Program-made: the position numbers and the translations under genes
Notes under the pieces: model-generated
Seen by the model: the letters and a program-made list of their open reading frames with translations, nothing else
Told to the model about the DNA's origin: nothing
Database searches by the model: none
Source: Catellatospora paridis
GTDB lineage: Bacteria; Actinomycetota; Actinomycetes; Mycobacteriales; Micromonosporaceae
DNA length: 64,000 nucleotides
Assembly: GCF_009720365.1 (NCBI RefSeq)
Contig: NZ_ML769314.1
Location: forward strand, 177,264-241,263
Direction: 5' to 3'
Shown: positions 42,933 through 63,339 of the stretch, one piece after another
Numbering within the stretch: position 1 is the stretch's first letter
How the letters are laid out: the number at the start of each line of letters is the position of its first letter

Positions 42933-42949
42933 CCGCGAGCAACACCGCA

Positions 42950-43042
42950 CCGGGCGGGGGGGGCGGGGAACCAGAGACCGCCCCCCCCCCCCGGGGGGGG
43001 CGGGCCGCCCCCCCCCCCCCCCCCCCCCCCCCGCCCGGTTTT
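42950..43042 (+). other. Extreme G/C homopolymer tract forming a hairpin
   Basis: Contains runs of 8 G (42956-42963), 12 C (42981-42992), 8 G (42993-43000) and 25 C (43008-43032). The ends CCGGGCGGGGGGGG (42950-42963) and CCCCCCCCGCCCGG (43025-43038) pair and are followed by TTTT, as in a terminator for the preceding gene. A 25-base homopolymer is rare in any genome; run lengths here may be unreliable. Confidence 0.6.
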
Positions 43043-51598: not shown

Positions 51599-52609
51599 GT
51601 GACGACGAGCAGGCTTTCGGCGGTGGCGAAGTTCGCGGGCGTGTCCGAGGCGACCGTGAGCCGGGTCTTACGCGGCAAGCCGGGGGTCTCCCAGGCCACC
51701 CGCGACACGGTGCTCACCGCGCTGGACGTGTTCGGCTTCGCCCGGCCGGAGCCCGTGCGCAGCGAGCGCGCCCGGCTGATCGGGCTGGTCGTGCCCGACC
51801 TCAGTAACCCGATCTTCCCGGCGTTCGCCGAGGTCATCGGGGTGTCGCTGATCCAGCGCGGGCTGGTGCCGGTGCTGTGCACGCGCACCTCCGACGGGGT
51901 GTCCGAGGCGCACTACATCGAGATGCTGCTGGCCCAGCAGGTCGGCGGGATCGTGTTCGTCGGCAGCAGCTACGCCGACGCCGGGCCCGCCGCGATCAAG
52001 CAGCTCACCGAGCGCAGGCTGCCCATAGTGCTGATCAACGCGGCCGACGAGAACCTCGGCGTGGCCCGGATCTGCGTCGACGACACCGGCGCGGCCGAGC
52101 AGGCGCTGGCGCACCTCGCGGGGCTGGGCCACGAGAAGATCGGGCTGATTCTGGGGCCCGTCGGGCACGTGCCGTCGGCCCGCAAGCTGGCCGGGTTCGC
52201 GAAGTTCTGGGAGGAACGCGGTGAGACCCGCTGGCGGCGCTGGGTGGACCACACGGTGTTCACCGTGGAGGGTGGCCGTGGCGCGGCGAACCGGCTGCTC
52301 GCGGCAGGGGTGACCGGGCTGGTGTGCGCCAGTGACGCGCTGGCGCTGGGCGCCGTTCGAGCGGTACGCAAGCAGGGCCTGGAGGTCCCGGACGACGTGT
52401 CGGTGGTCGGCTTCGACGACTCGACCTTCATGGGCGTGACCGACCCGCCCTTGACCACGGTGCGCCAACCGGTGCGAGCCATGGCCGGTGCGGCGGTGAT
52501 CTCCCTGTTGTCACAGCTGGAGGGCCGTCCGGCGGCGGCCGAAGAAGTGCTGTTCGACCCCGAGCTGATCGTCCGCAGCACCACCGGCCCGTGCCCGGTG
52601 CGCGCTTAG
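51599..52609 (+). CDS. LacI-family regulator 1 of the alpha-glucan locus
   Basis: 336 residues, GTG start behind GGAGGT. DNA-binding domain 1-50 with SEATVSRVLRGKPGVSQATR, and ligand domain with RARLIGLVVPDLSNPIFPAFAE, GIVFVGSSYAD, LAHLAGLGHEKIGLILG, and FDDSTFMGVTDPPLTTVRQP. Related to the LacI protein starting at 63560 across all overlapping residues (e.g. VPVLCTRTSDGVSE against TPVLCARTVDGVAE). The locus between them carries transporter, glucanases and glucosidase. Likely effector: an oligosaccharide of alpha-glucose; inferred. Confidence 0.92.
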   Translation: MTTSRLSAVAKFAGVSEATVSRVLRGKPGVSQATRDTVLTALDVFGFARPEPVRSERARLIGLVVPDLSNPIFPAFAEVIGVSLIQRGLVPVLCTRTSDGVSEAHYIEMLLAQQVGGIVFVGSSYADAGPAAIKQLTERRLPIVLINAADENLGVARICVDDTGAAEQALAHLAGLGHEKIGLILGPVGHVPSARKLAGFAKFWEERGETRWRRWVDHTVFTVEGGRGAANRLLAAGVTGLVCASDALALGAVRAVRKQGLEVPDDVSVVGFDDSTFMGVTDPPLTTVRQPVRAMAGAAVISLLSQLEGRPAAAEEVLFDPELIVRSTTGPCPVRA

Positions 52610-52755
52610 GCCCACCCGTGCACTCCGGTCCCCGCCCGCAACGCCGCCGGCGGCAAGCCCCGACTGCCACGCACCCGGCCCCCGGGTGCGCCGCTGCTGC
52701 GCGCCTTCGCCCGGATCGCGCCGTCACCACGGGCCGCGCCCTGGGGTCGGTGGAT

Positions 52756-52830
52756 GATCGTTCGACTTGCCTGGCACATGGGCGTATGAGTGTGCAAGAT
52801 ACGCACACCTGCCGGGCAAGTCGGGCGATC
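52756..52830. repeat. 75-bp palindromic repeat, copy A
   Basis: Arms 52756-52776 and 52810-52830, 21 bases each, pair at 18 positions with G-T at the other three. Core CAAGATACGCACA is shared with copy B at 61435, which is the same length to the base. Both begin GATCG and end CGATC and contain ACTTGCC/GGCAAGT arms. No ORF or transposase. Probably a mobile or REP-like palindrome. Confidence 0.8.
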
Positions 52831-52919
52831 TTGGGGTGGGACGGGCGTCACGGGGTGGCGGCGATCTAGCGATCGGGCAGGTCGCGCCCTTCTTGAGCGA
52901 TCATATCGATGAGTCACGA

Positions 52920-52939
52920 ACTTGCGGGGCTGTGCAAGT
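52920..52939. promoter_or_regulatory. Inverted repeat with CTTGC/GCAAG half-sites before the transporter
   Basis: ACTTGC (52920-52925) and GCAAGT (52934-52939), spacer eight bases, about 210 bp before the binding-protein start. Same half-sites as at 35257 and 63522. Confidence 0.5.
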
Positions 52940-53146
52940 GGATGGCAAACGAGCCATCACGTTTTTGCGTCATCCTCTGGACTTCCGGGCGCGAGCGCGC
53001 CTATCCTTCTGCTCACGCCACGGCGCTGTAACCCCCGAGCGACGCGGCCGCAATGCGCGATTAACAAACCCGGAGCGCCCGCCGCTGCCGGAGCAGCCGG
53101 GCCGGCTGAGGTCCGGGATGTGCATACAGAAGGGATCGGAGAACCG

Positions 53147-54505
53147 ATGAACCGACGTTTGCTCGGCAAGTCGCTGGCGCTCGCGCTGGTGGCCGGCACG
53201 ACGATGCTCGGCGCGGCCTGCGCCAGCGAGGAGCCGGCGACCCCCAGCGGTCCGGTGACCATCACCGTCAACGGGATGCCCCCGGCGACGGACGCGGTCA
53301 ACCGCAAGAACTTCGAGGACGATGTCAAGGCGTTCGAGGCCAAGTACCCGAACATCAAGATTGACGCCAAAGAGGGGTTCATGGACCCCCAGCAGTTCGC
53401 TACGAAGCTGGCCGGCGGCCAGCTGGAGGACGTCTTCTACGTCTACCTGACCGACCCGGCGAGCCTGATCGCCAAGCGCCAGGTCCAGGACATCTCCGCA
53501 CAGCTGGCGGCGTTCCCGTCGATCAAGGACGTCAAGCCGGACCTGATGAAGGTCTTCACCGGCGGCGACGGCAAGATCTACGGCGTTCCGGTGGCGAACT
53601 ACTCGCTGGGCCTGGTCTACAACCGGACGCTGTTCACCAAGGCCGGCCTCGACCCGGCGAGCCCGCCCAAGACCTGGGAAGAGGTCCGTGAGGCGGCCAA
53701 GAAGATCGCGGCGCTGGGCAACGGCACCGTCGGCTACGGCGACTACAGCAAGAACAACACCGGCGGCTGGCACTTCACCGCGGAGATGTACTCCATCGGT
53801 GGCGACGTCGCCGTCAAGGAGGGCGAGGCCTGGAAGGCCGCCTTCAACAACGACAAGGGCAAGCAGGTCCTGCAGCAGCTGAAGGACATGCGCTGGACGG
53901 ACAACACGATGGGCCAGCGCCAGCTGCTCGAGTGGGCCGACCTGCTGCAGATGATGGCGTCGGGCAAGCTCGGCATGTACATCGGCTCGGCGGACAACTT
54001 CCCCGTCATCGTGAACCAGTACAAGGCCAAGTACGAGGACTTCGGTCTCGGCGGCATCCCCGGCGGCCAGGGCACCCTGGGCGGCGGCGACGGCTACATG
54101 TTCAAGGCCGGCCTCAGCCCCGAGAAGATCAAGGCCGGTCTGACCTGGCTGTCCTTCAAGGGCGGCGCGCTCGACCCGGACCGCATCGCGGCCGACAACG
54201 AGAAGGCGGCCGCCAAGGGCCAGCCGGTGGGCCTGCCCCAGCCGAACATCTGGACCGGCGCCTCGCTGGCCAAGTGGGAAGAGGCGACCAAGAAGCACGC
54301 CAACATCCCGTCGCAGAACTTCGGCCCGTTCCTGGCCACCTCCACCACCATCCCGCTGAAGCTCGAGCCGCCGCTGGCGCAGCAGATCTACGCGGTGCTG
54401 GACACGGCGATGCAGAAGGTGCTGACCGACCAGAACGCCGACATCAGCAAGCTGCTGGCGGACGCCGAGAAGCAGGTCAACACCATCCTGTCGACCGTCA
54501 AGTGA
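53147..54505 (+). CDS. Sugar ABC transporter substrate-binding lipoprotein
   Basis: 452 residues. Lipobox LGAAC with Cys25. CUT1-type extracellular solute-binding fold: DDVKAFEAKYPNIKIDA, DVFYVYLTDPASLIAKRQVQDI, IYGVPVANYSLGLVYNRTLF, SKNNTGGWHF and AIT-like LGGIPGGQGTL at the closing segment. Expected ligand an oligosaccharide, here probably nigero- or maltooligosaccharides, judging from the hydrolases around. GGAG seven bases before ATG. No ATPase is encoded with it; such actinobacterial systems share the MsiK ATPase. Confidence 0.93.
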   Translation: MNRRLLGKSLALALVAGTTMLGAACASEEPATPSGPVTITVNGMPPATDAVNRKNFEDDVKAFEAKYPNIKIDAKEGFMDPQQFATKLAGGQLEDVFYVYLTDPASLIAKRQVQDISAQLAAFPSIKDVKPDLMKVFTGGDGKIYGVPVANYSLGLVYNRTLFTKAGLDPASPPKTWEEVREAAKKIAALGNGTVGYGDYSKNNTGGWHFTAEMYSIGGDVAVKEGEAWKAAFNNDKGKQVLQQLKDMRWTDNTMGQRQLLEWADLLQMMASGKLGMYIGSADNFPVIVNQYKAKYEDFGLGGIPGGQGTLGGGDGYMFKAGLSPEKIKAGLTWLSFKGGALDPDRIAADNEKAAAKGQPVGLPQPNIWTGASLAKWEEATKKHANIPSQNFGPFLATSTTIPLKLEPPLAQQIYAVLDTAMQKVLTDQNADISKLLADAEKQVNTILSTVK

Positions 54506-54512
54506 CGCGGTA

Positions 54513-54593
54513 GGGTCCCGGACCGCGGGGGCGCCGGTAGGAAGTCCAGGTGCCAAGCCACCAGGACGAATGACCGGCGCAGGTCCGGGACCC
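54513..54593 (+). terminator. 81-base stem-loop between binding protein and permeases
   Basis: Nested pairing: GGGTCCCGGACC (54513-54524) with GGTCCGGGACCC (54582-54593), GCGCCGGT (54531-54538) with ACCGGCGC (54573-54580), and an inner imperfect pair GTCCAGGTG (54544-54552) / CACCAGGAC (54559-54567). No T-tail. It likely reduces read-through and stabilises the upstream message so that the binding protein exceeds the permeases. Confidence 0.7.
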
Positions 54594-54645
54594 ACCTGCC
54601 GACCAGGCACACCGGGTTCAGCACAGCAGGAGAGGAAGCACGACG

Positions 54646-55608
54646 ATGACGGTGATCGCGCCGGAGACCACGGCAGCGGTGACACGGGGGACGGGGCGCG
54701 ACGGCGGGCCAGGGGGGCCGGGCTCGGCCCGCATGGCGAGGCTGCGTCGTAAGATCGGCGACAACGTACAGGCGTACATCTTCCTGGCGGCAGGTCTGCT
54801 CTGCTTCGGCCTGTTCTCCTGGTGGCCGCTGGTCAAGGGCATCATCCTCAGCTTCCAGCAGGACAACTTCGTCACCGACCCGATCTGGGTCGGGTTCGAC
54901 AACTACCAGGCGGTGCTCGACGACCCGCTGTTCGCCACCGCATGGCTGAACACACTGGAGTTCACCGGCCTGGCGCTGCTGTTCGGGTTCGCGGTGCCGT
55001 TCGTGCTGGCGCTGGTCATCAACGAGTTCCGCCACGCCAAGGGCTTCTTCCGGTTCGCGGTGTACCTGCCGGTGATGCTGCCGCCGATCGTCAGCGTGCT
55101 GCTGTGGCAGTACTTCTACGACCCCGGCACGGGCCTGTTCAACGCGATCCTGTCCGGCGTGGGCCTGCCCACCTCCGACTGGACGCAGTCGCCGAAGATG
55201 GCGATGATCTCGCTGGTACTGGTCTCGACCTGGGCCAACATGGGCGGCGCGACCATCATGTACCTGGCCGGCCTGGCCGGCATCCCCGGTGAGCTGTATG
55301 AGGCCGCCGAACTCGACGGCGCGTCGGTCTGGCAGCGCATCAGGCACGTGACCATCCCGCAGATGCGCTTCATCATGCTGGTCTTGCTGCTGCTGCAGAT
55401 CGTGGCCACGATGCAGGTCTTCATCGAGCCCTATCAGCTCACCGGCGCCACCAACCCCGAGACGATCACGGTGATGATCCTCATCTACCGGTACGCGTTC
55501 ACCGTCAACAACGACTTCGGCATGGCCGCGGCGATGAGCGTGCTGCTGTTCATCGTGCTCGGTGCGTTCTCGGCCCTCTACCTGCGGCTCACCCGCAAGG
55601 CCGACTGA
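54646..55608 (+). CDS. Sugar ABC permease 1 (MalF type)
   Basis: 320 residues, six membrane helices, first at about 45-65. EAA loop EAAELDGASVWQRIRHVTIPQM, contacting the ATPase, near 225. A 35-residue Gly/Arg N-terminus precedes helix 1. The ATG at 54646 is preceded by GAGAGGAAGCACGACG. Followed by permease 2 after 12 bp with GAGGAGG, so the two are co-translated. Confidence 0.92.
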   Translation: MTVIAPETTAAVTRGTGRDGGPGGPGSARMARLRRKIGDNVQAYIFLAAGLLCFGLFSWWPLVKGIILSFQQDNFVTDPIWVGFDNYQAVLDDPLFATAWLNTLEFTGLALLFGFAVPFVLALVINEFRHAKGFFRFAVYLPVMLPPIVSVLLWQYFYDPGTGLFNAILSGVGLPTSDWTQSPKMAMISLVLVSTWANMGGATIMYLAGLAGIPGELYEAAELDGASVWQRIRHVTIPQMRFIMLVLLLLQIVATMQVFIEPYQLTGATNPETITVMILIYRYAFTVNNDFGMAAAMSVLLFIVLGAFSALYLRLTRKAD

Positions 55609-55620
55609 GGAGGATCCCAG

Positions 55621-56508
55621 ATGAGCTCGATGACGCGATCCCTGATCTCGGAGGCCGACCTGCGCCGCGGCCACGGCCGCCTGATCTACCGGCTGGTGCT
55701 GGGCGCGATGGCGGTGGCCTTCGTGCTGATGTTCATCGGCCCGCTGTACTGGATGGTCATCGGCGCTTTCAAGACGCCGATCGAGCTGGCCCAGACGCCG
55801 CCGACCATCCTGCCGACCGAGTGGCACCCGGAGACCTACCTCGACGCGTGGAACCGGCTCGAGATCGGGCGCTACATGGTCAACACGGCGTTCTACGCGC
55901 TCGGCGGCTGGCTCATCCAGCTGATCGTCGACGTCGCCGCCGCGTACGCCCTGTCGAAGTTGCGGCCGGTGCTCGGCAACGTGGTGCTGGGCGGCATGCT
56001 GGCCAGCCTGATGCTGCCGGCCGCGGCGCTGCTGGTGCCCGCCTACCTGACCGTGGCCGAGGTGCCGATCTTCGGGGTCAACCTGCTGAACACCCCGTGG
56101 GCGCTGTGGCTGCCGGGCGCGGCCAACGCGTTCAACATCTACGTGCTCAAGCGGTTCTTCGACCAGATCCCCAACGATCTGCTGGACTCGGCGGGCATCG
56201 ACGGCGCGGGCAGGTTCCGTCTGCTCTGGCACATCATCCTGCCGCTGTCGCGGCCGGTGCTGGCGGTGGTCTCCATCTTCGCGATCATCGGTTCCTGGAA
56301 GGACTTCATCTGGCCGCTGCTGGTGCTGCAGGACCCGGAGGGTCAGACCATCAGCGTGGCGCTGAGCCGGCTGGCCGAGACCGGGCGGGTGACCAACAAC
56401 GAGATGTTCGCGGGCCTCGCCATCGCCAGCATCCCGATGGTGGTCCTGTTCATGATCTTCCAGCGCAGCATCCTCAACGGCCTGTCCGCGGGAGCCCTCA
56501 AGGGGTAG
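55621..56508 (+). CDS. Sugar ABC permease 2 (MalG type)
   Basis: 295 residues, six membrane helices; N-terminal cytoplasmic part about 25 residues. EAA loop DSAGIDGAGRFRLLWHIILPL and the C-terminal QRSILNGLSAGALKG, typical of MalG. With the preceding genes it completes an importer that lacks its own ATPase. Confidence 0.92.
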   Translation: MSSMTRSLISEADLRRGHGRLIYRLVLGAMAVAFVLMFIGPLYWMVIGAFKTPIELAQTPPTILPTEWHPETYLDAWNRLEIGRYMVNTAFYALGGWLIQLIVDVAAAYALSKLRPVLGNVVLGGMLASLMLPAAALLVPAYLTVAEVPIFGVNLLNTPWALWLPGAANAFNIYVLKRFFDQIPNDLLDSAGIDGAGRFRLLWHIILPLSRPVLAVVSIFAIIGSWKDFIWPLLVLQDPEGQTISVALSRLAETGRVTNNEMFAGLAIASIPMVVLFMIFQRSILNGLSAGALKG

Positions 56509-56702
56509 GCCGCACCCAGATTTCCGGCCGCCCCGCCCGGTGGCGGCCGGATCAGAGATCCGCTCACGCATCGCCGCCCGGTTCCCATGCCCGGGGGCCG
56601 GTCGGTGCTGCCCGGAACACGGCCCGCCCGCCATCGCGCGAGGCAGGCGGCCGGGTTCCACCGCCACGGGGGACACACCCACGCAAGTGAAGGGAGTACG
56701 CA

Positions 56703-59666
56703 ATGACGCTGCACCATCGCACCGCTCCACGCATCCCCGCTCGCACCCTGCTGGCCGCGCTCGCCGCGACCGTGCTCACCCTCGGCGCAGGCCTGCTCAC
56801 GGCCCTGCCCGCGTCCGCCGCGACCACGACGTACCAGGCCGAGTCGGCCGCGCGGTCCGGCGGGACCGTGGTCGCCACCGACCACACCGGCTACACCGGT
56901 TCCGGTTTCGTGGGCGGCTACACCGACACGAACAAGGGCAACGCCAACCTGACGTTCACGGTGAACGTGTCCGGGACGGCCAACCGCACGCTGACCATGC
57001 GCTACGCCAACGGCACCACGGCCACCAAGACGCTGTCGCTGTACGTCAACGGCACGAAGATCAAGCAGATCAGCCTCAACGCCACCGCCAACTGGGACAC
57101 CTGGGGCACCCAGGTCGAGACCGTGTCCCTGGCCAACGGCAACAGCACGGTGTCGTACAAGTTCGACACGGCCGACTCCGGCAACGTCAACCTGGACAGC
57201 CTGACCGTCGCCGACATCGCGGCCCCGCCCGCGGGCCAGTACGAGGCCGAGTCCGCCTCGCTGTCCGGCGGCACGACGGTCGCCACGGACCACCCCGGCT
57301 TCACCGGTTCCGGTTTCGTGGGCGGCTACACCGACGGCAACAAGGGCAACGCGAACACGTCGTTCACTGTGAACACCGCGAGCGCGGGCACCGCCACGGT
57401 GACCGTGCGCTACGCCAACGGCACCGGCGCGAACATGACGCTGTCGCTGTACGTCAACGGCGGCAAGCTGCGCCAGATCAATCTCCCGGCCACCGCCAAC
57501 TGGGACACCTGGGGCACGATCGCCGAGGCCGTGACGCTCAACGCGGGCAACAACACGGTCGCGATCAAGTTCGACAGCACCGACTCGGGCAACATCAACC
57601 TGGACAACATCAGCGTGTCCGGGACGACCCCGCCGAGCAGCCCGAGCCCGACCCCGAGCACCAGCCCGACCCCGCCGCCCACGGGCGTGAGCTACGAGCT
57701 GGAGACCGGGTTCACCTCCGGTGGCGCGTCGACCGCGACCAGCACCGGCGGTTACACCGGAAGCGGCTACGTGACCGGCCTGACCACGGCCGGCGCGCGC
57801 GTGATCCGGACCGTCAACGCCACCGCGGCGGGGGCGACCACGGTGACACTGCGCTACACCAACACCAACGGCGCGGCTCGCACCGTGTCCGTGCATGTCA
57901 ACGGTCTCAAGACCGGCCGGCTCTCGCTGCCCGCCGGTGCGGGCTGGCTCAACGCCGCGCAGAGCATCACGCTGCGCGCCGGGCTGAACATCATCGGCTA
58001 CCAGTACGACTCGGGCGACTCCGGCAACGTGCTGCTGGACAACGTCACCGTCGGCAGCGGCACGGCGCTGGCCACACGCGGCGCGACCCTGCCGTACACC
58101 GTCTACGAGGCGGAGTCGGGCAGCACCAACGCGGCGCTGATCGGGCCGAACCGGGCCTACCTGACCGAGCCGTCGGAGGCGTCCGGCCGCCGGGCCGTGA
58201 AGCTGTCCTCGACCGGCCAGTACGTGCAGGTCACGCTGAGCAAGCCGGCGAACGCGTTCGTGATCCGCTACTCGATCCCGGACAACGCGGCGGGCACGGG
58301 CAACACCAACCCGCTGGCGCTGTACGCGGGCAGCACGAAGATCCAGGACGTCAGCCTCAGCTCGACCTACAGCTGGGTGTACGGGGCGTACCCGTACAAC
58401 AACAACCCGGCGGGCGGCGAGCCGCACCGGTTCTTCGACGACGTGCGGGTGCTGCTGGGCACCACCTACCCGGCGGGCACGGTCATCAAGCTGCAGAAGG
58501 ACGCGTCCTCGTCGGCGGCGTACTACACGATCGACCTGATCGAGGCCGAGGTCGCCCCGGCGGCCCTGTCCGCCCCGGCCGACTTCCTGTCGGTGACCTC
58601 GTACGGCGCGGTCGCCAACGACGCCGGTGACGACACCAACGCGTTCAACAGCGCGATCTCCGCGGCGCAGAGCCAGGGCAAGGGCCTGTGGGTGCCGGCC
58701 GGCACGTTCGTCACGAACGCGCGGCTCAACATCCAGAACGTCTCCCTGCGCGGCGCGGGCGTGTGGCACACCGTCATCAAGGGCACGAACGGCAAGGGCG
58801 GCTTCTTCGCCACCGGGTCCAACGTGCGGCTGGCCGACTTCACCCTGTCCGGCGACGTGCGCTACCGCGACGACAGCGCGTTCGACGCGGGCATCGAGGG
58901 CAACTTCGGCACCGGCTCGCTGGTCAGCAACGTCTGGCTGGAGCACACCAAGGTCGGCATGTGGCCGTCCACCGGCACCAACGGCCTGTACGTCGTCGGC
59001 ACCCGGATGCGCAACATCTTCGCCGACGGCGTGAACGTCAACGGCGGCGCGACCAACGTGCGCGTCGACCAGAGCACGCTGCGCAACACCGGCGACGACG
59101 CGCTGGCCATGTGGTCCAACTCGGCGCCCGTCACGAACAGCGCGTTCACCTTCAACACGGTGGCGCTGCCGATGCTGGCCAACGGTGCGGCGATCTACGG
59201 CGGCAACGGCAACCGCATCGAGGACAACCTGATCAGCGACTCGGTGTACGCCGGGTCCGGCATCGCCATCAGCACCTGGCACGGGGCGCAGCCGTTCAGC
59301 AACACCACCTCGGTGCAGCGCAACACGCTGACTCGCACGTCCAGCTTCGAGCGCAACTGGAACTCGTCGCTGGGCGGCCTGTGGATCTACGCGGAGGCCA
59401 CCGACATCACGGCCCCGGTCCTGGTCAAGGACGTCGACATCATCGATTCCACGTACCAGGGCATCCTGCTCAGCTTCCAGCGCAACATCACCAACCTCAC
59501 GCTCGACCACGTCACCGTCAACGGCGCCGGGACGTACGGGATCGAGCTCAACGCCGCGGGCAGCGCGTACGTCACGTACGTCACCGTCTCCGGCGCCGCG
59601 AGCGGCGGGTTGATCAACCGTCTGGGCTACACGCTCAACCGCGGCCCCGGCAACAGCGGTTTCTGA
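56703..59666 (+). CDS. Secreted GH87-type enzyme with three CBM35-like modules
   Basis: 987 residues. Signal peptide 1-40. Three tandem CBM35-like modules: about 41-175 (YQAESAARSGG), 179-310 (YEAESASLSGG), a Pro/Ser/Thr linker, and 331-455 (YELETGFTSGG), the first two almost identical in sequence. The catalytic part about 466-987 has the same beta-sandwich lead (YEAESGSTNAALIG, EASGRRAVKLS) and beta-helix as the 35637 protein. Candidate triad Asp775 (FADGVNVNGG), Asp798 and Asp799 (NTGDDALAMWS), again 23 residues apart. Extracellular degradation of alpha-1,3-glucan or nigeran is proposed. AGGGAG seven bases before ATG. Confidence 0.82.
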   Translation: MTLHHRTAPRIPARTLLAALAATVLTLGAGLLTALPASAATTTYQAESAARSGGTVVATDHTGYTGSGFVGGYTDTNKGNANLTFTVNVSGTANRTLTMRYANGTTATKTLSLYVNGTKIKQISLNATANWDTWGTQVETVSLANGNSTVSYKFDTADSGNVNLDSLTVADIAAPPAGQYEAESASLSGGTTVATDHPGFTGSGFVGGYTDGNKGNANTSFTVNTASAGTATVTVRYANGTGANMTLSLYVNGGKLRQINLPATANWDTWGTIAEAVTLNAGNNTVAIKFDSTDSGNINLDNISVSGTTPPSSPSPTPSTSPTPPPTGVSYELETGFTSGGASTATSTGGYTGSGYVTGLTTAGARVIRTVNATAAGATTVTLRYTNTNGAARTVSVHVNGLKTGRLSLPAGAGWLNAAQSITLRAGLNIIGYQYDSGDSGNVLLDNVTVGSGTALATRGATLPYTVYEAESGSTNAALIGPNRAYLTEPSEASGRRAVKLSSTGQYVQVTLSKPANAFVIRYSIPDNAAGTGNTNPLALYAGSTKIQDVSLSSTYSWVYGAYPYNNNPAGGEPHRFFDDVRVLLGTTYPAGTVIKLQKDASSSAAYYTIDLIEAEVAPAALSAPADFLSVTSYGAVANDAGDDTNAFNSAISAAQSQGKGLWVPAGTFVTNARLNIQNVSLRGAGVWHTVIKGTNGKGGFFATGSNVRLADFTLSGDVRYRDDSAFDAGIEGNFGTGSLVSNVWLEHTKVGMWPSTGTNGLYVVGTRMRNIFADGVNVNGGATNVRVDQSTLRNTGDDALAMWSNSAPVTNSAFTFNTVALPMLANGAAIYGGNGNRIEDNLISDSVYAGSGIAISTWHGAQPFSNTTSVQRNTLTRTSSFERNWNSSLGGLWIYAEATDITAPVLVKDVDIIDSTYQGILLSFQRNITNLTLDHVTVNGAGTYGIELNAAGSAYVTYVTVSGAASGGLINRLGYTLNRGPGNSGF

Positions 59667-59701
59667 CCGGACCCACTGCGAATCACTGAAGGCAGGTACC
59701 C

Positions 59702-61321
59702 GTGTTCCACAACGACACCCGTGACTGGTGGCACCACGCCGCCATCTACCAGGTCTACCCGCGCTCCTTCGCCGACGCGAACGGCGACGGCGTGGGCGAC
59801 CTGGCGGGTATCCGCGCCAAGCTCGGGTACCTGCACTCCCTCGGCATCAACGCCATCTGGTTCAGCCCCTGGTACCCGTCGCCGATGGCGGACGCCGGCT
59901 ACGACGTGGCCGACTACCGCGACATCGACCCGTCCTTCGGCACCCTCGAAGAGGCGGAGCTGCTGATCGCGGAGGCGCACGAGCGCGACATCCGCATCAT
60001 CATCGACATCGTGCCGAACCACTGCTCCGACGCCCACGCGTGGTTCCAGCGCGCGCTGGCCGAGGGGCCGGGCTCGCCGGCCCGGGACCTGTTCTGGTTC
60101 CGGGCCGGTCGGGGCGAGCACGGCGAGCTGCCGCCCAACGACTGGAGCTCCATCTTCAACGGCCCCGCCTGGACCCGCGTCGCCGACGGCGAGTGGTACC
60201 TGCACCTGTTCGCCCCCGAGCAGCCCGACCTGAACTGGGAGAACCCGCTGGTCCGGGCGGAGTTCGAGGACATCCTGCGGTTCTGGTTCGACCGCGGCAT
60301 CGACGGCATCCGCATCGACTCCGCCGCGCTGTGCGTCAAGGACCCGACGCTGGCCGACTTCGACCCGGCCGCGCCGCCGACCCCGCACCCGTTCGAGGAC
60401 CGCGACGCCATCCACGACATCTACCGCTCGTGGCGGGTCATCGCCGACTCGTACGAGCAGCCGCGGGCCCTCATCGGCGAGGTGCTGCTCGCCGACATCG
60501 ACCGGTTCGCGCTGTACCTGCGACCCGACGAGATGCACGCCGCGTTCAACTTCCACTTCCTGGGCTGCCCGTGGGACGCCAAGTCGCTGCGCCACTGCGT
60601 GGACGCGACGCTGGCCTCGCACGCCCCGGTCGGCGCGCCGAGCAGCTGGGTGCTGGCCAACCACGACGTCACGCGTACGGTGACCCGCTACGGCCGCACC
60701 GACACCGGCTTCGAGCACGCGCTGCGCCAGGCCCGCCACCTCATGCCCACCGACGCGACGCTCGGCCTGCGCCGGGCCCGCGCGGCGGCGCTGCTGACCC
60801 TGGCCCTGCCCGGCTCGGTGTACGTGTACCAGGGTGAGGAGCTGGGCCTGCCCGACGTCGAGCGGCTGCCCGATGACACCCGCCAGGACCCGATCTACCA
60901 CCGTTCCGGCGGCACCGACCCGGGCCGCGACGGCTGCCGGGTGCCGCTGCCCTGGTCGTCGACGGGCGCCTCGCACGGTTTCAGCCCTGAAGGCGGCGCA
61001 CCCGCCTGGCTGCCGCAGCCCGACTGGGCGCACCTGACCGTCGAGGCCCAGCAGGCCGACCCCGGCTCGATGCTGCGCCTCTACCAGGCCGCGCTGGCCA
61101 TCCGGGGCAGCGAGGCAGGGCTCGGCGACGGCCCGATGACTTGGCTGGACACCCCGGAGGCGGTGGTGGCGTTCACCCGGCCCGGCGGCTTCACCTGCGT
61201 GGTGAACCTGTCCGCCGAGCCGGTCGACCTGCCCCCGCACACCGCGGTGATGCTGACCAGCATCGACCTGACCGACGGTCGCCTGCCCGCCGACGCCTCG
61301 GCCTGGCTGCGCACCGTCTGA
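59702..61321 (+). CDS. Intracellular GH13 alpha-glucosidase
   Basis: 539 residues, no signal peptide, so acts on imported oligosaccharides. GH13 regions: DIVPNHCSD (region I), GIRIDSAA with nucleophile Asp206, IGEVLLAD with acid/base Glu260, and VLANHDVTRT with Asp322. QVYPRSFADANGDGVGDL at the N-terminus and the short QPDLNWENP loop are of the alpha-glucosidase/oligo-1,6-glucosidase subfamily. Substrate most likely short alpha-glucosides released by the GH87 enzymes. GTG start after AAGGCAGG, 35 bp behind the preceding gene, so part of the operon. Confidence 0.93.
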   Translation: MFHNDTRDWWHHAAIYQVYPRSFADANGDGVGDLAGIRAKLGYLHSLGINAIWFSPWYPSPMADAGYDVADYRDIDPSFGTLEEAELLIAEAHERDIRIIIDIVPNHCSDAHAWFQRALAEGPGSPARDLFWFRAGRGEHGELPPNDWSSIFNGPAWTRVADGEWYLHLFAPEQPDLNWENPLVRAEFEDILRFWFDRGIDGIRIDSAALCVKDPTLADFDPAAPPTPHPFEDRDAIHDIYRSWRVIADSYEQPRALIGEVLLADIDRFALYLRPDEMHAAFNFHFLGCPWDAKSLRHCVDATLASHAPVGAPSSWVLANHDVTRTVTRYGRTDTGFEHALRQARHLMPTDATLGLRRARAAALLTLALPGSVYVYQGEELGLPDVERLPDDTRQDPIYHRSGGTDPGRDGCRVPLPWSSTGASHGFSPEGGAPAWLPQPDWAHLTVEAQQADPGSMLRLYQAALAIRGSEAGLGDGPMTWLDTPEAVVAFTRPGGFTCVVNLSAEPVDLPPHTAVMLTSIDLTDGRLPADASAWLRTV

Positions 61322-61327
61322 CAGACC

Positions 61328-61364
61328 ACCCGCGGCGGCGGTTGAGCGGACCGCCGCCGCGGGT
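61328..61364 (+). terminator. Perfect 15-bp terminator after the glucosidase
   Basis: ACCCGCGGCGGCGGT (61328-61342) pairs with ACCGCCGCCGCGGGT (61350-61364); loop seven bases, then TCCTTCCTCC. Confidence 0.8.
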
Positions 61365-61434
61365 CCTTCCTCCAAGCCCGCCCACCATTCGCCCCGCGGC
61401 CCCGCCTTCCCCCGTGGGCCGCGACGCTCGTCAT

Positions 61435-61509
61435 GATCGCCGGACTTGCCTGGCAACCGGGCGAAAGCGCCTTCAAGATACGCACAGGTGCCAGGCAAGT
61501 CCGGCGATC
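61435..61509. repeat. 75-bp palindromic repeat, copy B
   Basis: Arms 61435-61455 and 61489-61509 are exact reverse complements over 21 bases; GGACTTGCCTGGCA marks the left arm. The 33-base centre shares CAAGATACGCACA with copy A. Lies between the glucosidase terminator and the GH87-2 gene start. Confidence 0.85.
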
Positions 61510-61566
61510 TCGGGCGGTCCGGCGGTGGGCGGCCACGGCGAGCGCACCTACTTCCAGGAGTCGCCG

Positions 61567-63339
61567 ATGTCCCGCAAAGTGTTGATTTCGCTGGTCGTGG
61601 CAGTGGTCGCGGTGGCCGGTGCCGCCGTGGCGGTCGCCTGGCCGCGGGAGGACAAGCCCGCGCCCGCGCCGCCGAGGCTGGCGACCGTCGGCGACATCAC
61701 CGGTCGTGGGGCGTCGCTGCCCTGGCGGGCGTACGAGGCGGAGCACGTGCGCACCGACGGCGCCGTCATCGGGCCGGACCGCCGCCACGGGACGCTCGCG
61801 GGGGAGGCCTCCGGCCGGATGGCGGTGACACTCCAGCCCGGACAGCGGCTGACGGTCACCCTGGCCGCCCCGGCGAACGCGGTCAACGTGCGCTTCTCGA
61901 TCCCCGACAGTGCGGACGGCAGGGGCCAGGACACCTCGCTCGCCATGGAGGCGGGCGGCGTGACCCTGCCCGCGCTCGCGCTGACCTCGCGCTACAGCTG
62001 GTTCTACGGCGGCTTCCCGTTCACGAACACCCCGGCGCAGGGCGGCGAGCGCCACCTGTACGACAGCGCCCGCACCCTGCTCGGCACCGACCTGCCCGCC
62101 GGCGCGACGGTCACGCTGCGCGCCGGCGGGCTGCCGACCACCCTCGACCTGGTCGAGTTCGAGCAGGTCGCGGATCCGCTGCCGCAGCCCGCCGGTGCCC
62201 TGTCGGTGGCCGACTTCGCGGCCGACCCGAGCGGCGCGCAGCCCGCCGGCGAGGCGTTCATCAAGGCGATCGCGGCGGCCCGTGCCCAGCGCAAGGTGCT
62301 CTACGTGCCCGCGGGCCGGTACGCGGTCGGGCAGCACCTGCCGGTCGACGGCGTCACCGTGCAGGGCGCGGGCATGTGGCACACCGAGCTGCGCGGCAAG
62401 GGCGTCGGCGTCTACGGCAACCCCGTCCCGAAGCCCTCCCAGCAGGTGCACGTGACCGACCTGGCGATCATCGGCGAGGTGGACGAGCGCGACGACCGGG
62501 CGGCGCTGGCCGGGGTCGGCGGTGCGCTCGGCGGCGGCTCGGTGCTGGAGCGCCTGTGGATCCAGCACGTCAAGGTCGGCATGTGGCTGGACGGCCCGTT
62601 CGACGGGCTGCGCATCACCGGATGCCGGATCATGGACGTCACCGCGGACGGCATCAACCTGCACCAGGGCGTCAGCAACACCGTGATCAGCGACAACCTG
62701 GTGCGCAACACCGGCGACGACGGCATCGCGCTGTGGTCGGAGGCCGGGCCCGACGGCTTCGACGGCGAGTACGGCGCGGACCGGCAGGTCACCGTCGAAC
62801 GCAACACCGTGCAACTGCCGATGCTGGCCAACGGCATCGCGATGTACGGCGGCCACGACAACACGGTCCGCGCGAACGTCGTCGCCGACATCCAGGTCGA
62901 GGGCGGCGGCATCCACGTCGGCAACCGCTTCTCCGCGACCCTGCTGCGCGGGGTCACCCGGATCGAGGGCAACACCACGCTGCGCGCCGGGGCCGACCAC
63001 CCGTTCCTGGCCACCCCGATCGGCGCGCTCTGGTTCTACGCCAAGGACGCCCCGCTCACCGGCGAGGTCCTGGTCACCGACAACGACCTGCTCGACAGCA
63101 CGCACGCCGCACTCCAGGTCCTCGGTTCCTCCGTCACCAACGTGACCATCACCGACCTGCGCGTGCACACCACCGGCACCCACCTCCTCCAGATCCAGTC
63201 CGCCGGCTCCCTGACCCTCTCCACCCTCACCGCCGAAGCCATCGGCGCCCAACCTCTCTTCCACTGCCCCGACGCCGTCACCTTCACCCTCACCGCCACG
63301 CCCCTAACCCCCACCTACTGCGGCCCCTTCCTCAAATGA
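61567..63339 (+). CDS. GH87-type beta-helix enzyme, membrane-anchored or secreted
   Basis: 590 residues. N-terminal hydrophobic segment about 6-26 (VLISLVVAVVAVAGAAVAVA) without a clear cleavage site, so a signal anchor is possible. Beta-sandwich module about 55-205 (YEAEHVRTDG, EASGRMAVTL, GGFPFTNTPAQG), beta-helix from 210. Candidate triad Asp361 (VTADGINLHQG), Asp384 and Asp385 (NTGDDGIALWS), spacing 23. No extra carbohydrate-binding module, so the leanest of the three GH87-like proteins; it may act on shorter, surface-held glucan. Closest to the 35637 protein (e.g. ERLWIQHVKVGMWLDGPFDG against WVEHVKVGMWFDGP). AGGAG eight bases before ATG. Confidence 0.82.
   Translation: MSRKVLISLVVAVVAVAGAAVAVAWPREDKPAPAPPRLATVGDITGRGASLPWRAYEAEHVRTDGAVIGPDRRHGTLAGEASGRMAVTLQPGQRLTVTLAAPANAVNVRFSIPDSADGRGQDTSLAMEAGGVTLPALALTSRYSWFYGGFPFTNTPAQGGERHLYDSARTLLGTDLPAGATVTLRAGGLPTTLDLVEFEQVADPLPQPAGALSVADFAADPSGAQPAGEAFIKAIAAARAQRKVLYVPAGRYAVGQHLPVDGVTVQGAGMWHTELRGKGVGVYGNPVPKPSQQVHVTDLAIIGEVDERDDRAALAGVGGALGGGSVLERLWIQHVKVGMWLDGPFDGLRITGCRIMDVTADGINLHQGVSNTVISDNLVRNTGDDGIALWSEAGPDGFDGEYGADRQVTVERNTVQLPMLANGIAMYGGHDNTVRANVVADIQVEGGGIHVGNRFSATLLRGVTRIEGNTTLRAGADHPFLATPIGALWFYAKDAPLTGEVLVTDNDLLDSTHAALQVLGSSVTNVTITDLRVHTTGTHLLQIQSAGSLTLSTLTAEAIGAQPLFHCPDAVTFTLTATPLTPTYCGPFLK

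What the first reader, a model, noticed from the sequence alone, without database searches (positions are those of the whole stretch)
52756..61509. Two copies of an exactly 75-bp palindromic element inside the glucan locus
52756-52830 and 61435-61509 have equal length, 21-base arms that are perfect in copy B and 18/21 with three G-T pairs in copy A, and a shared CAAGATACGCACA core. The differences in the arms preserve RNA pairing, which suggests selection or recent spread of a foldable unit. It has no ORF and could be a REP/MITE-type element or an RNA structure.
Basis: seen in the sequence. Interest (0 to 1): 0.7.

Follow-up and report, generated by a model that had tools for sequence, protein, structure and literature searches.

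The report
Genus-wide 83-bp palindromic repeat family
The two matching palindromes are copies of an 83-base DNA hairpin repeat, so far seen only in the soil bacterium genus Catellatospora, that sits roughly a hundred times in the genomes counted, mostly just past the ends of genes, and appears to be preserved there by natural selection, although what copies it and what reads it are unknown.

Summary
Both copies (52756-52830, 61435-61509) belong to an 83-bp palindromic repeat with at least 93 copies in this genome and at least 135 in a single-contig relative. It is in 11 of 11 Catellatospora genomes, 0 of 30 genomes of other genera, and 0 of 289 other genomes of its family by exact arm pattern. 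Of 93 copies 89 are intergenic, a median 31 bp from a stop codon, with no strand bias relative to genes. Orthologous copies are held in place: conserved columns differ 2.6-3.9%, flanks 19%. Clades have shifted their consensus by matched changes in both arms. Half-elements are nearly absent. No consistent RAYT gene and no target-site duplication were found. Best reading: a REPIN-like family without RAYT, copied rarely as a unit by an unknown factor and kept as a sequence-specific, two-way hairpin or protein site at gene 3' ends. Seven other hairpin clusters share this niche. New variant of a known kind; function unproven.

The parts
52752..52834 (+). copy A, full 83-bp element (75-bp palindrome 52756-52830 plus CCWW/WWGG edges)
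52756..52776 (+). copy A left 21-nt arm (pairs with 52810-52830: 18 WC, 3 G-T)
52810..52830 (+). copy A right 21-nt arm
52795..52807 (+). copy A conserved asymmetric core CAAGATACGCACA
61431..61513 (+). copy B, full 83-bp element; inner 75 bp identical in G000, G004 and G007 (read from the alignment)
61435..61455 (+). copy B left 21-nt arm (21/21 paired with 61489-61509)
61489..61509 (+). copy B right 21-nt arm
61474..61486 (+). copy B conserved asymmetric core CAAGATACGCACA
61329..61363 (+). separate terminator-like hairpin (14-nt arms) directly after the alpha-amylase-family stop codon; also in G003 and G001, which lack copy B
51623..52609 (+). LacI-family regulator; copy A's palindrome starts 146 bp past its stop codon
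53159..54505 (+). sugar-binding ABC transporter protein (SBP_bac_1), gene downstream of copy A
59702..61321 (+). alpha-amylase-family enzyme; copy B's palindrome starts 113 bp past its stop codon
61567..63339 (+). second alpha-1,3-glucanase-like gene (CatAgl domains), downstream of copy B; start taken as the ATG at 61567 (my gene finder put it at 61525)

Best explanation
It is one family of short interspersed palindromes specific to Catellatospora as far as searched, built like a REPIN (two inverted, conserved arms around an asymmetric core) but with no consistent RAYT transposase. SHOWN: at least 93 dispersed copies; location past gene 3' ends; no orientation bias; presence/absence turnover at orthologous gaps; slow change of sequence and length in place; clade-wide matched changes of both arms; near absence of half-elements. 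INFERRED: the whole unit is recognised, as an extruded DNA hairpin or as paired half-sites on duplex DNA, by a sequence-specific protein that has changed its preference between clades, so that all copies follow; new copies arise rarely and as whole units; survivors are those landing between a stop codon and the next promoter, where they act in both directions as a 3'-end hairpin (terminating or trimming transcripts) or as a protein anchor between genes.
For: Copy number and dispersal. Genus restriction. Context of 93 copies: 49 tandem, 29 convergent, 11 divergent, 3 over a predicted CDS, 1 at a contig end; 18 of the 29 convergent ones have under 50 bp on both sides; median 31 bp to a 3' end and 107 bp to a 5' end; strand 27:22 in tandem gaps. 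In-place constraint, 27 independent orthologous pairs: columns conserved at 90% or more differ 2.6% (3.9% outside the pattern used for fetching), variable columns 26%, 75-nt flanks 19% with 166 gap events in 54 flanks; 47 of 49 same-orientation pairs have equal length. Compensatory clade shifts. At orthologous sites column 54 is A in clade A and C in G008 in 11 of 12 same-orientation pairs. 172 full elements and 3 lone arms in 1.99 Mb, two of those at contig ends.
Against: No candidate protein: Y1_Tnp is absent in 5 of 11 genomes and the RAYT model is over cut-off in 0 of 11; a nuclease-like gene flanked by two inverted copies is broken in G000 although its copies persist. No clean 83-bp insertion in 7 alignments at 5 sites: net differences were 118-432 bp in six, and in one the gap held other sequence. 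11 of 93 copies are divergent, and copy B has an ordinary hairpin before it. No T-tract terminator was called at either copy. Two of the five covariation measures barely exceed or do not exceed shuffles (pairs with two-sided change 18 of 500 as high; pair types 146 of 500), and the rest count sequences, not events. Matched arm changes would arise equally from inverted protein half-sites. Orthologous copies of distant clades are no more alike at variable columns than random ones (0.697 against 0.682, 4 pairs), so independent insertion into the same gaps is possible.
Confidence: 0.6

Rival explanations
1. A family of strong two-way transcription terminators, not mobile: each copy simply ends the transcripts of one or both flanking genes.
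For: Position past stop codons and convergent enrichment; both strands of copies A and B fold at -42 to -53 kcal/mol; in-place constraint and compensation. In Streptomyces, long stable hairpins with poor U-tracts end transcripts (PMC12207403, passages seen).
Against: A terminator needs a stem, not near-invariant letters in 40 of 83 columns; 11 divergent copies; 583 of 820 orthologous non-divergent gap sides without the family have no strong hairpin at all; copy B stands behind another hairpin.
Confidence: 0.25
2. A chromosome-organising or topology site (such as the gyrase binding reported for E. coli BIME-2, PMC2817692 passage) placed between transcription units.
For: Sequence-level constraint, no strand preference, 3'-end preference; about 16 copies per Mb in G008 but only 7 of 135 in the 1.9 Mb around the point opposite dnaA.
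Against: No binding data; terminus depletion not controlled for gene content; no replication-strand bias (74:61).
Confidence: 0.2
3. A MITE: deletion derivative of an insertion sequence, moved by that element's transposase.
For: Inverted arms, dispersed intergenic copies, presence/absence turnover.
Against: No target-site duplication around 92 copies for any of 169 border choices and no clean insertion in 7 alignments; no arm found bordering a longer element in 1.99 Mb; constraint after insertion.
Confidence: 0.08
4. A true REP/REPIN family driven by a RAYT transposase.
For: Same two-arm architecture as REPINs and similar copy numbers (PMC8049555 passage).
Against: RAYT model NF047646: 0 of 11 genomes over cut-off, 3 weak hits at places of Y1_Tnp hits; Y1_Tnp PF01797 found in 6 of 11, 7 of its 9 hits in frames of 150-157 aa (IS200-like in size, from recall), and absent in 5 genomes that are full of copies; no GTAG/CGTC tag.
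Confidence: 0.04
5. A structured RNA (small RNA or riboswitch) present in many copies.
For: Stable fold; conserved asymmetric core; covariation.
Against: No Rfam match at the copies; strand random relative to tandem neighbours; near 3' rather than 5' ends.
Confidence: 0.05

Closest known systems
REPINs (two inverted REPs; PMC3116915, PMC8049555, passages seen)
   Same: Two inverted conserved arms with a spacer, hairpin-forming, extragenic, around a hundred copies per genome, vertical persistence
   Different: No consistent RAYT; no GTAG-type head; lone arms almost absent; another phylum (Actinomycetota); no excision footprint seen
REP and BIME elements of E. coli (PMC2817692, abstract and passages)
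   Same: Extragenic palindromes
   Different: 83-bp single unit rather than 20-40 bp; mostly solitary (3 neighbouring pairs under 3 kb among 135 in G008); no binding protein known for it
MITE-like short repeats such as Correia/NEMIS and ERIC/RU (names partly from recall)
   Same: Short, palindromic, intergenic, dispersed
   Different: No target duplication, no parent element found, sequence constraint in place
Terminators with poor U-tract in Streptomyces (PMC12207403, passages)
   Same: Long stable hairpin past the stop codon without T-run
   Different: Near-invariant sequence shared by about a hundred loci

Membership tests
REP (RAYT-type) | many extragenic palindromic copies | tested here: met
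REP (RAYT-type) | unit of 20-40 bp tagged GTAG or CGTC at one end (PMC3733652, start of abstract in listing; tag names in its title) | tested here: not met
   83 bp, ends CCAWGATC...GATCWWGG; consensus
REP (RAYT-type) | rayt gene in the genome, flanked by inverted REPs (PMC2817692 abstract) | tested here: not met
   NF047646 0 of 11 over cut-off, PF01797 absent in 5 of 11
REPIN | two inverted repeats around a spacer, able to fold | tested here: met
REPIN | singlet arms as decaying remnants (PMC8049555 passage) | tested here: not met
   3 lone arms, 2 of them at contig ends, against 172 full in 1.99 Mb
REPIN | clean excision or insertion footprints | tested here: inconclusive
   7 alignments at 5 sites, none clean; the compared species differ by about 5% in genes and no close strains were available
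MITE | target-site duplication | tested here: not met
   92 copies, direct repeats of 2-8 bp at 169 border choices: at most 4 of 92 in the best-scoring choices for lengths 4-8; 7 empty-site alignments
MITE | parent transposon with the same ends | tested here: inconclusive
   none in 1.99 Mb scanned; whole genomes could not be scanned for half-ends
Intrinsic terminator | GC-rich hairpin just past a stop codon | tested here: met
Intrinsic terminator | T-tract after the stem | tested here: not met
   one search lists no terminator at copy A or B (its model allows loops of 3-8 only, but the letters after the stems are not T-rich either)
Intrinsic terminator | transcripts end there | not testable with these tools
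   needs Term-seq
Rfam RNA family | match to a curated model | tested here: not met
   window 52000-62500, E up to 5, one weak hit elsewhere

The most novel reading that the evidence does not exclude
Catellatospora runs a RAYT-independent REPIN-like system: an unknown sequence-specific protein recognises whole palindromes, its preference changed between clades, and about a hundred sites per genome followed it in concert, by matched changes in both arms. Several such hairpin families compete for the same gene 3' ends, so that one family can replace another at an orthologous gap (family 1 in G000, G008 and, inverted, G005; family 3 in G003 and G004 at the gap of G000 C3:61279).
Probability: 0.3. 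Interest if true: 0.7.

Novelty: new variant of a known kind. Interest (0 to 1): 0.5.

Why it matters
REPINs are known with their copying enzyme, RAYT. A family with the same architecture and in-place constraint but no consistent RAYT suggests that another copying or reading protein exists. The clade-specific consensus shifts give a handle to find it: a protein in all Catellatospora genomes whose DNA-contact residues differ between the G000, G008 and G005/G009/G010 clades. It also offers a natural set of about a hundred closely similar 3'-end hairpins for testing how high-GC actinomycetes end transcripts without U-tracts.

Tried and rejected
Extended hairpins: flanks beyond the element looked complementary in some copies, but not more than with shuffled partners (262 of 2000 shuffles as high); rejected. 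Covariation inside one genome: only 2 of 21 predicted pairs with a two-sided change in 31 copies, and 4 pairs at p below 0.03, uncorrected, in 84 copies. In 27 orthologous pairs 15 two-sided stem changes against 10.3 expected (29 of 1000 shuffles as high). The strong signal comes only from comparing clades and rests on few clade-level changes.

RAYT or Y1 transposase: not found as a consistent partner. Nuclease-like gene (284 aa, weak match to REase_MTES_1575 and DUF559, under Pfam's cut-offs) between two inverted copies in C. coxensis, C. sichuanensis, G008 and G009: considered as a RAYT analogue. In G000 that place holds only broken remains, yet G000 keeps at least 93 copies (whether G000 has another such gene elsewhere was not searched in the whole genome); more simply, each copy sits at a gene 3' end. 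Not claimed.

Replacement by other hairpin families: 6 of 16 one-sided comparisons hold family 3, but these are 3 of 9 distinct gaps, against a 13.5% background of gap sides with another family (111 of 820); not significant by my own reckoning, and at copy A's gap G004 has both families, so G003 may simply have lost one. Insertion with target duplication: not seen. Plasmids, phages, viral contigs: no match. Replication-strand bias: none. First alignment of loci on the wrong strand was redone. The regex scan for families 2-8 gave many chance hits and was not used. Literature: the lists showed no paper on such repeats in Catellatospora or Micromonosporaceae; papers were seen only as listings, abstracts or passages.

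Limits: gene calls are from my own codon-usage finder; copy counts are lower bounds because the search scores at most 150 places, both strands counted; distinct copies were counted only in G000 and G008; one search used stricter filters; the 80 named loci were fetched by an exact 28-nt pattern, hence the check outside that pattern; 6 of the 55 orthologous pairs are 'flipped', some only because two copies lie close together. Named and numbered genomes overlap: G004 shares a contig length with C. sichuanensis.
Full report
OBSERVATION. Copy A (52756-52830) and copy B (61435-61509) are present as described: 75 bp each, 59/75 identical, arms of 21 nt that pair 18 WC + 3 G-T in A and 21/21 in B, and a shared CAAGATACGCACA. 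Aligning 31 genomic copies shows that the conserved unit is 83 bp, roughly CCAWGATCGYYCGACTTGCCNGGCA..TGGGCGAAWGCGNGNTCAAGATACGCACAGGTGCCNGGCAAGTCGGNCGATCAWGG. Of 93 copies 84 are 83 bp, 7 are 82, and two are 76 and 77. The weight matrix finds only these two in the window. They lie in an alpha-1,3-glucan locus: LacI regulator, sugar ABC transporter, CatAgl glucanase, alpha-amylase-family enzyme, second CatAgl gene.

HOW MANY AND WHERE. A covariance model built from 31 copies gives 150 rows in the window's genome, which reduce to 93 distinct places, a lower bound because only 150 candidates are scored. The single-contig genome G008 has at least 135. All 11 genomes of the genus have matches (85-111 rows, both strands, capped at 111) and none of 30 genomes from 30 other genera, 14 of the same family and 16 of the order (stricter filters). 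The exact arm pattern is in 9 of 11 genus genomes and in 0 of the 289 other family members among the 300 scanned. A scan of the genome collection (84,980 species) with a 28-nt pattern gave 91 stretches; all 80 listed are Catellatospora, family Micromonosporaceae. No plasmid, phage or viral-contig match. The window's strain itself is unnamed; its genus follows from these neighbours.

CONTEXT. With my own gene finder, 49 copies lie in tandem gaps, 29 between convergent genes, 11 between divergent genes, 3 over a predicted CDS and 1 at a contig end, of 93. The palindrome starts a median 31 bp from a stop codon (n = 107) and 107 bp from a start codon (n = 71); in tandem gaps it is nearer the upstream gene's end in 43 of 49; in 18 of 29 convergent gaps fewer than 50 bp remain on both sides. 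The strand of the asymmetric core is unrelated to the direction of the genes in tandem gaps (27 same, 22 opposite, p = 0.57) and to replication in G008 (74:61, p = 0.30). In G008 copies are rare opposite dnaA: 7 of 135 between 4.85 and 6.75 Mb, dnaA being at 1.43 Mb; I had no control for gene content.

EVOLUTION IN PLACE. Of 178 copies with flanks (93 from G000, 85 from five named species) 55 pairs are orthologous by both flanks, 49 in the same orientation. In 27 independent same-orientation pairs, columns conserved at 90% or more differ 2.6%, variable columns 26%, whereas the 75-nt flanks differ 19% with 166 gap events in 54 flanks; 47 of the 49 same-orientation pairs have equal element length. 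Because the named loci were fetched by a pattern inside the element, I repeated the count outside it: 3.9% against 26.6%; a synteny-based sample of 8 pairs (one site used twice) gives 1.6% against 19.1%. Random copies differ by 3.5% at conserved and 58% at variable columns, so orthologs keep their individual letters; wholesale gene conversion would have erased these. I read this as purifying selection on individual copies. Copy B is 75/75 identical in G000, G004 and G007; copy A's site is filled in 6 of 8 aligned genomes and empty in G003 and G001.

TURNOVER. In a contiguous 400-kb stretch of G000 with its counterparts in G003 (400 kb) and G004 (320 kb) there are 11, 9 and 8 copies. Of 436 orthologous non-divergent gap pairs, 26 hold the element in at least one genome: 10 in both, 16 in one only. 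In 7 alignments at 5 sites no clean 83-bp difference was seen: net differences of 118-432 bp in six, other sequence in the gap in one. Direct repeats at the borders of 92 copies are rare whatever border is chosen (at most 4 of 92 in the best-scoring choices for lengths 4-8, over 169 border choices). So neither simple transposition nor precise excision is shown. At three of nine one-sided gaps the other genome holds a different palindrome, family 3.

COORDINATED CHANGE. Clades differ in consensus. Clade A (G000, C. sichuanensis, C. vulcania, C. coxensis) has ATACGCAC; G008 has ATACGCCC (G000 A 87%, G008 C 95% at column 54). G005/G009/G010 have about CAAGTTGCCGGGCAATCGGGCG...CGCCCGATTGCCCGGCAACTTGG, with both arms changed to match (10-11 copies each). 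On 76 copies from the three groups the stem has 151 two-sided changes (shuffles 79 +/- 7; slid partners at most 24) and a covariation score of 0.187 (shuffles 0.107 +/- 0.006; slid at most 0.058); the number of pairs with a two-sided change (11 against 9.0, 18 of 500 as high) and of pair types (37 against 35.6, 146 of 500) hardly exceed shuffles, as expected if few clade-level changes make up the signal. At orthologous sites the clade letters are found in place: column 54 is A in clade A (here also C. methionotrophica and C. bangladeshensis) and C in G008 in 11 of 12 same-orientation pairs, and those pairs are closer at variable columns than random ones (0.474 against 0.566; 8 of 2000), while clade A against G005/G009/G010 are not (0.697 against 0.682; 4 pairs). 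One copy shows its core inverted in place: G000 C10:282954 and C. coxensis L133 share the inner 41 nt exactly, the outer arm GATCATCGGACTTGCC stays on the same genomic side and the core is flipped. In the cross-clade comparison, 3 of 15 and 2 of 6 unique pairs are flipped.

MECHANISM. A sequence this rigid in letters, length and symmetry, indifferent to transcription direction, changing in both arms together and almost never found as half (172 full, 3 lone arms of which 2 at contig ends, 1.99 Mb), fits recognition of the whole unit by a sequence-specific protein, on duplex or on an extruded hairpin. RAYT, the known enzyme for such units, is not consistently present. The location just past stop codons, also between close convergent stops, fits a two-way 3'-end hairpin; that step is inferred. 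Copy B shows that it need not be the first terminator: a 35-nt GC hairpin precedes it (61329-61363) and is also in species without copy B. In Streptomyces, term-seq hairpins are long, stable and poor in U (PMC12207403, passages), so the lack of a T-tract does not exclude termination.

COMPARISON. REPs are described as extragenic 20-40-bp palindromes, most in GTAG- or CGTC-tagged families (PMC3733652, start of abstract in the listings; its text holds none of the actinobacterial names I searched for); RAYT genes are flanked by inverted REPs (PMC2817692, abstract and passages); REPINs are paired inverted REPs copied by RAYT and persisting for long times (PMC3116915, PMC8049555, passages). The present family works like a REPIN population but fails the RAYT, tag and remnant tests, so I do not file it as one.

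VERDICT. A real, sizeable, genus-specific palindromic repeat family, for which my literature searches (listed under Tried and rejected) showed no description; a new variant of the REP/REPIN kind, with in-place constraint and clade-wide matched shifts as its unusual features.

Noticed in passing
G008 C1 and other Catellatospora genomes; in G000 for example C3:285411-285457: A second hairpin family, AAGGGCACCTTC...GAAGGTGCCCTT (usually 18 nt between), with 190 exact copies in G008 (0 for the reversed pattern), 38-201 in 10 of 11 genus genomes, 1 in G010, 0 of 30 outside the genus.
   Followed up: partly
G000 C3:1-400000, G003 and G004 counterparts (L257-L312): Six further intergenic hairpin clusters (for example CGCAACTCTTAAAGAGTCGCG, TGATCATGAACTTATGGCAC, GATCGCTGTCTCGTGTCAGAA, GACGATCTTGCGCG, TTGGCCTATCTGGATGA, TGCAGTTTCGGGGAAACTGC), mostly in convergent or tandem gaps.
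   Followed up: partly
L088:5308-6499, L136:3890-5206, L357:1501-2669, L332:1501-2820: A nuclease-like gene of about 285 codons (weak REase_MTES_1575/DUF559 match, under cut-off) lies between two inverted copies of the element in four genomes of three clades; in G000 (L059) the gene is broken.
   Followed up: partly
G008 C1:4.85-6.75 Mb: Copies are scarce in the region opposite dnaA: 7 of 135 in 1.9 of 8.6 Mb; cause unknown.
   Followed up: partly
G000 C10:282954 and L133:3649-3731: The element's core is inverted in place between two species while the outer arm stays.
   Followed up: partly
window 42948-43039 (G000 C3:220211-220302): Long G and C homopolymer runs, also seen as poly-C beside copy A's site in G007; may be real or sequencing error.
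   Followed up: no
G000 C4:471406 and C4:472020; L099: Another inverted pair of copies around a small DUF3099 gene, kept in C. sichuanensis.
   Followed up: no
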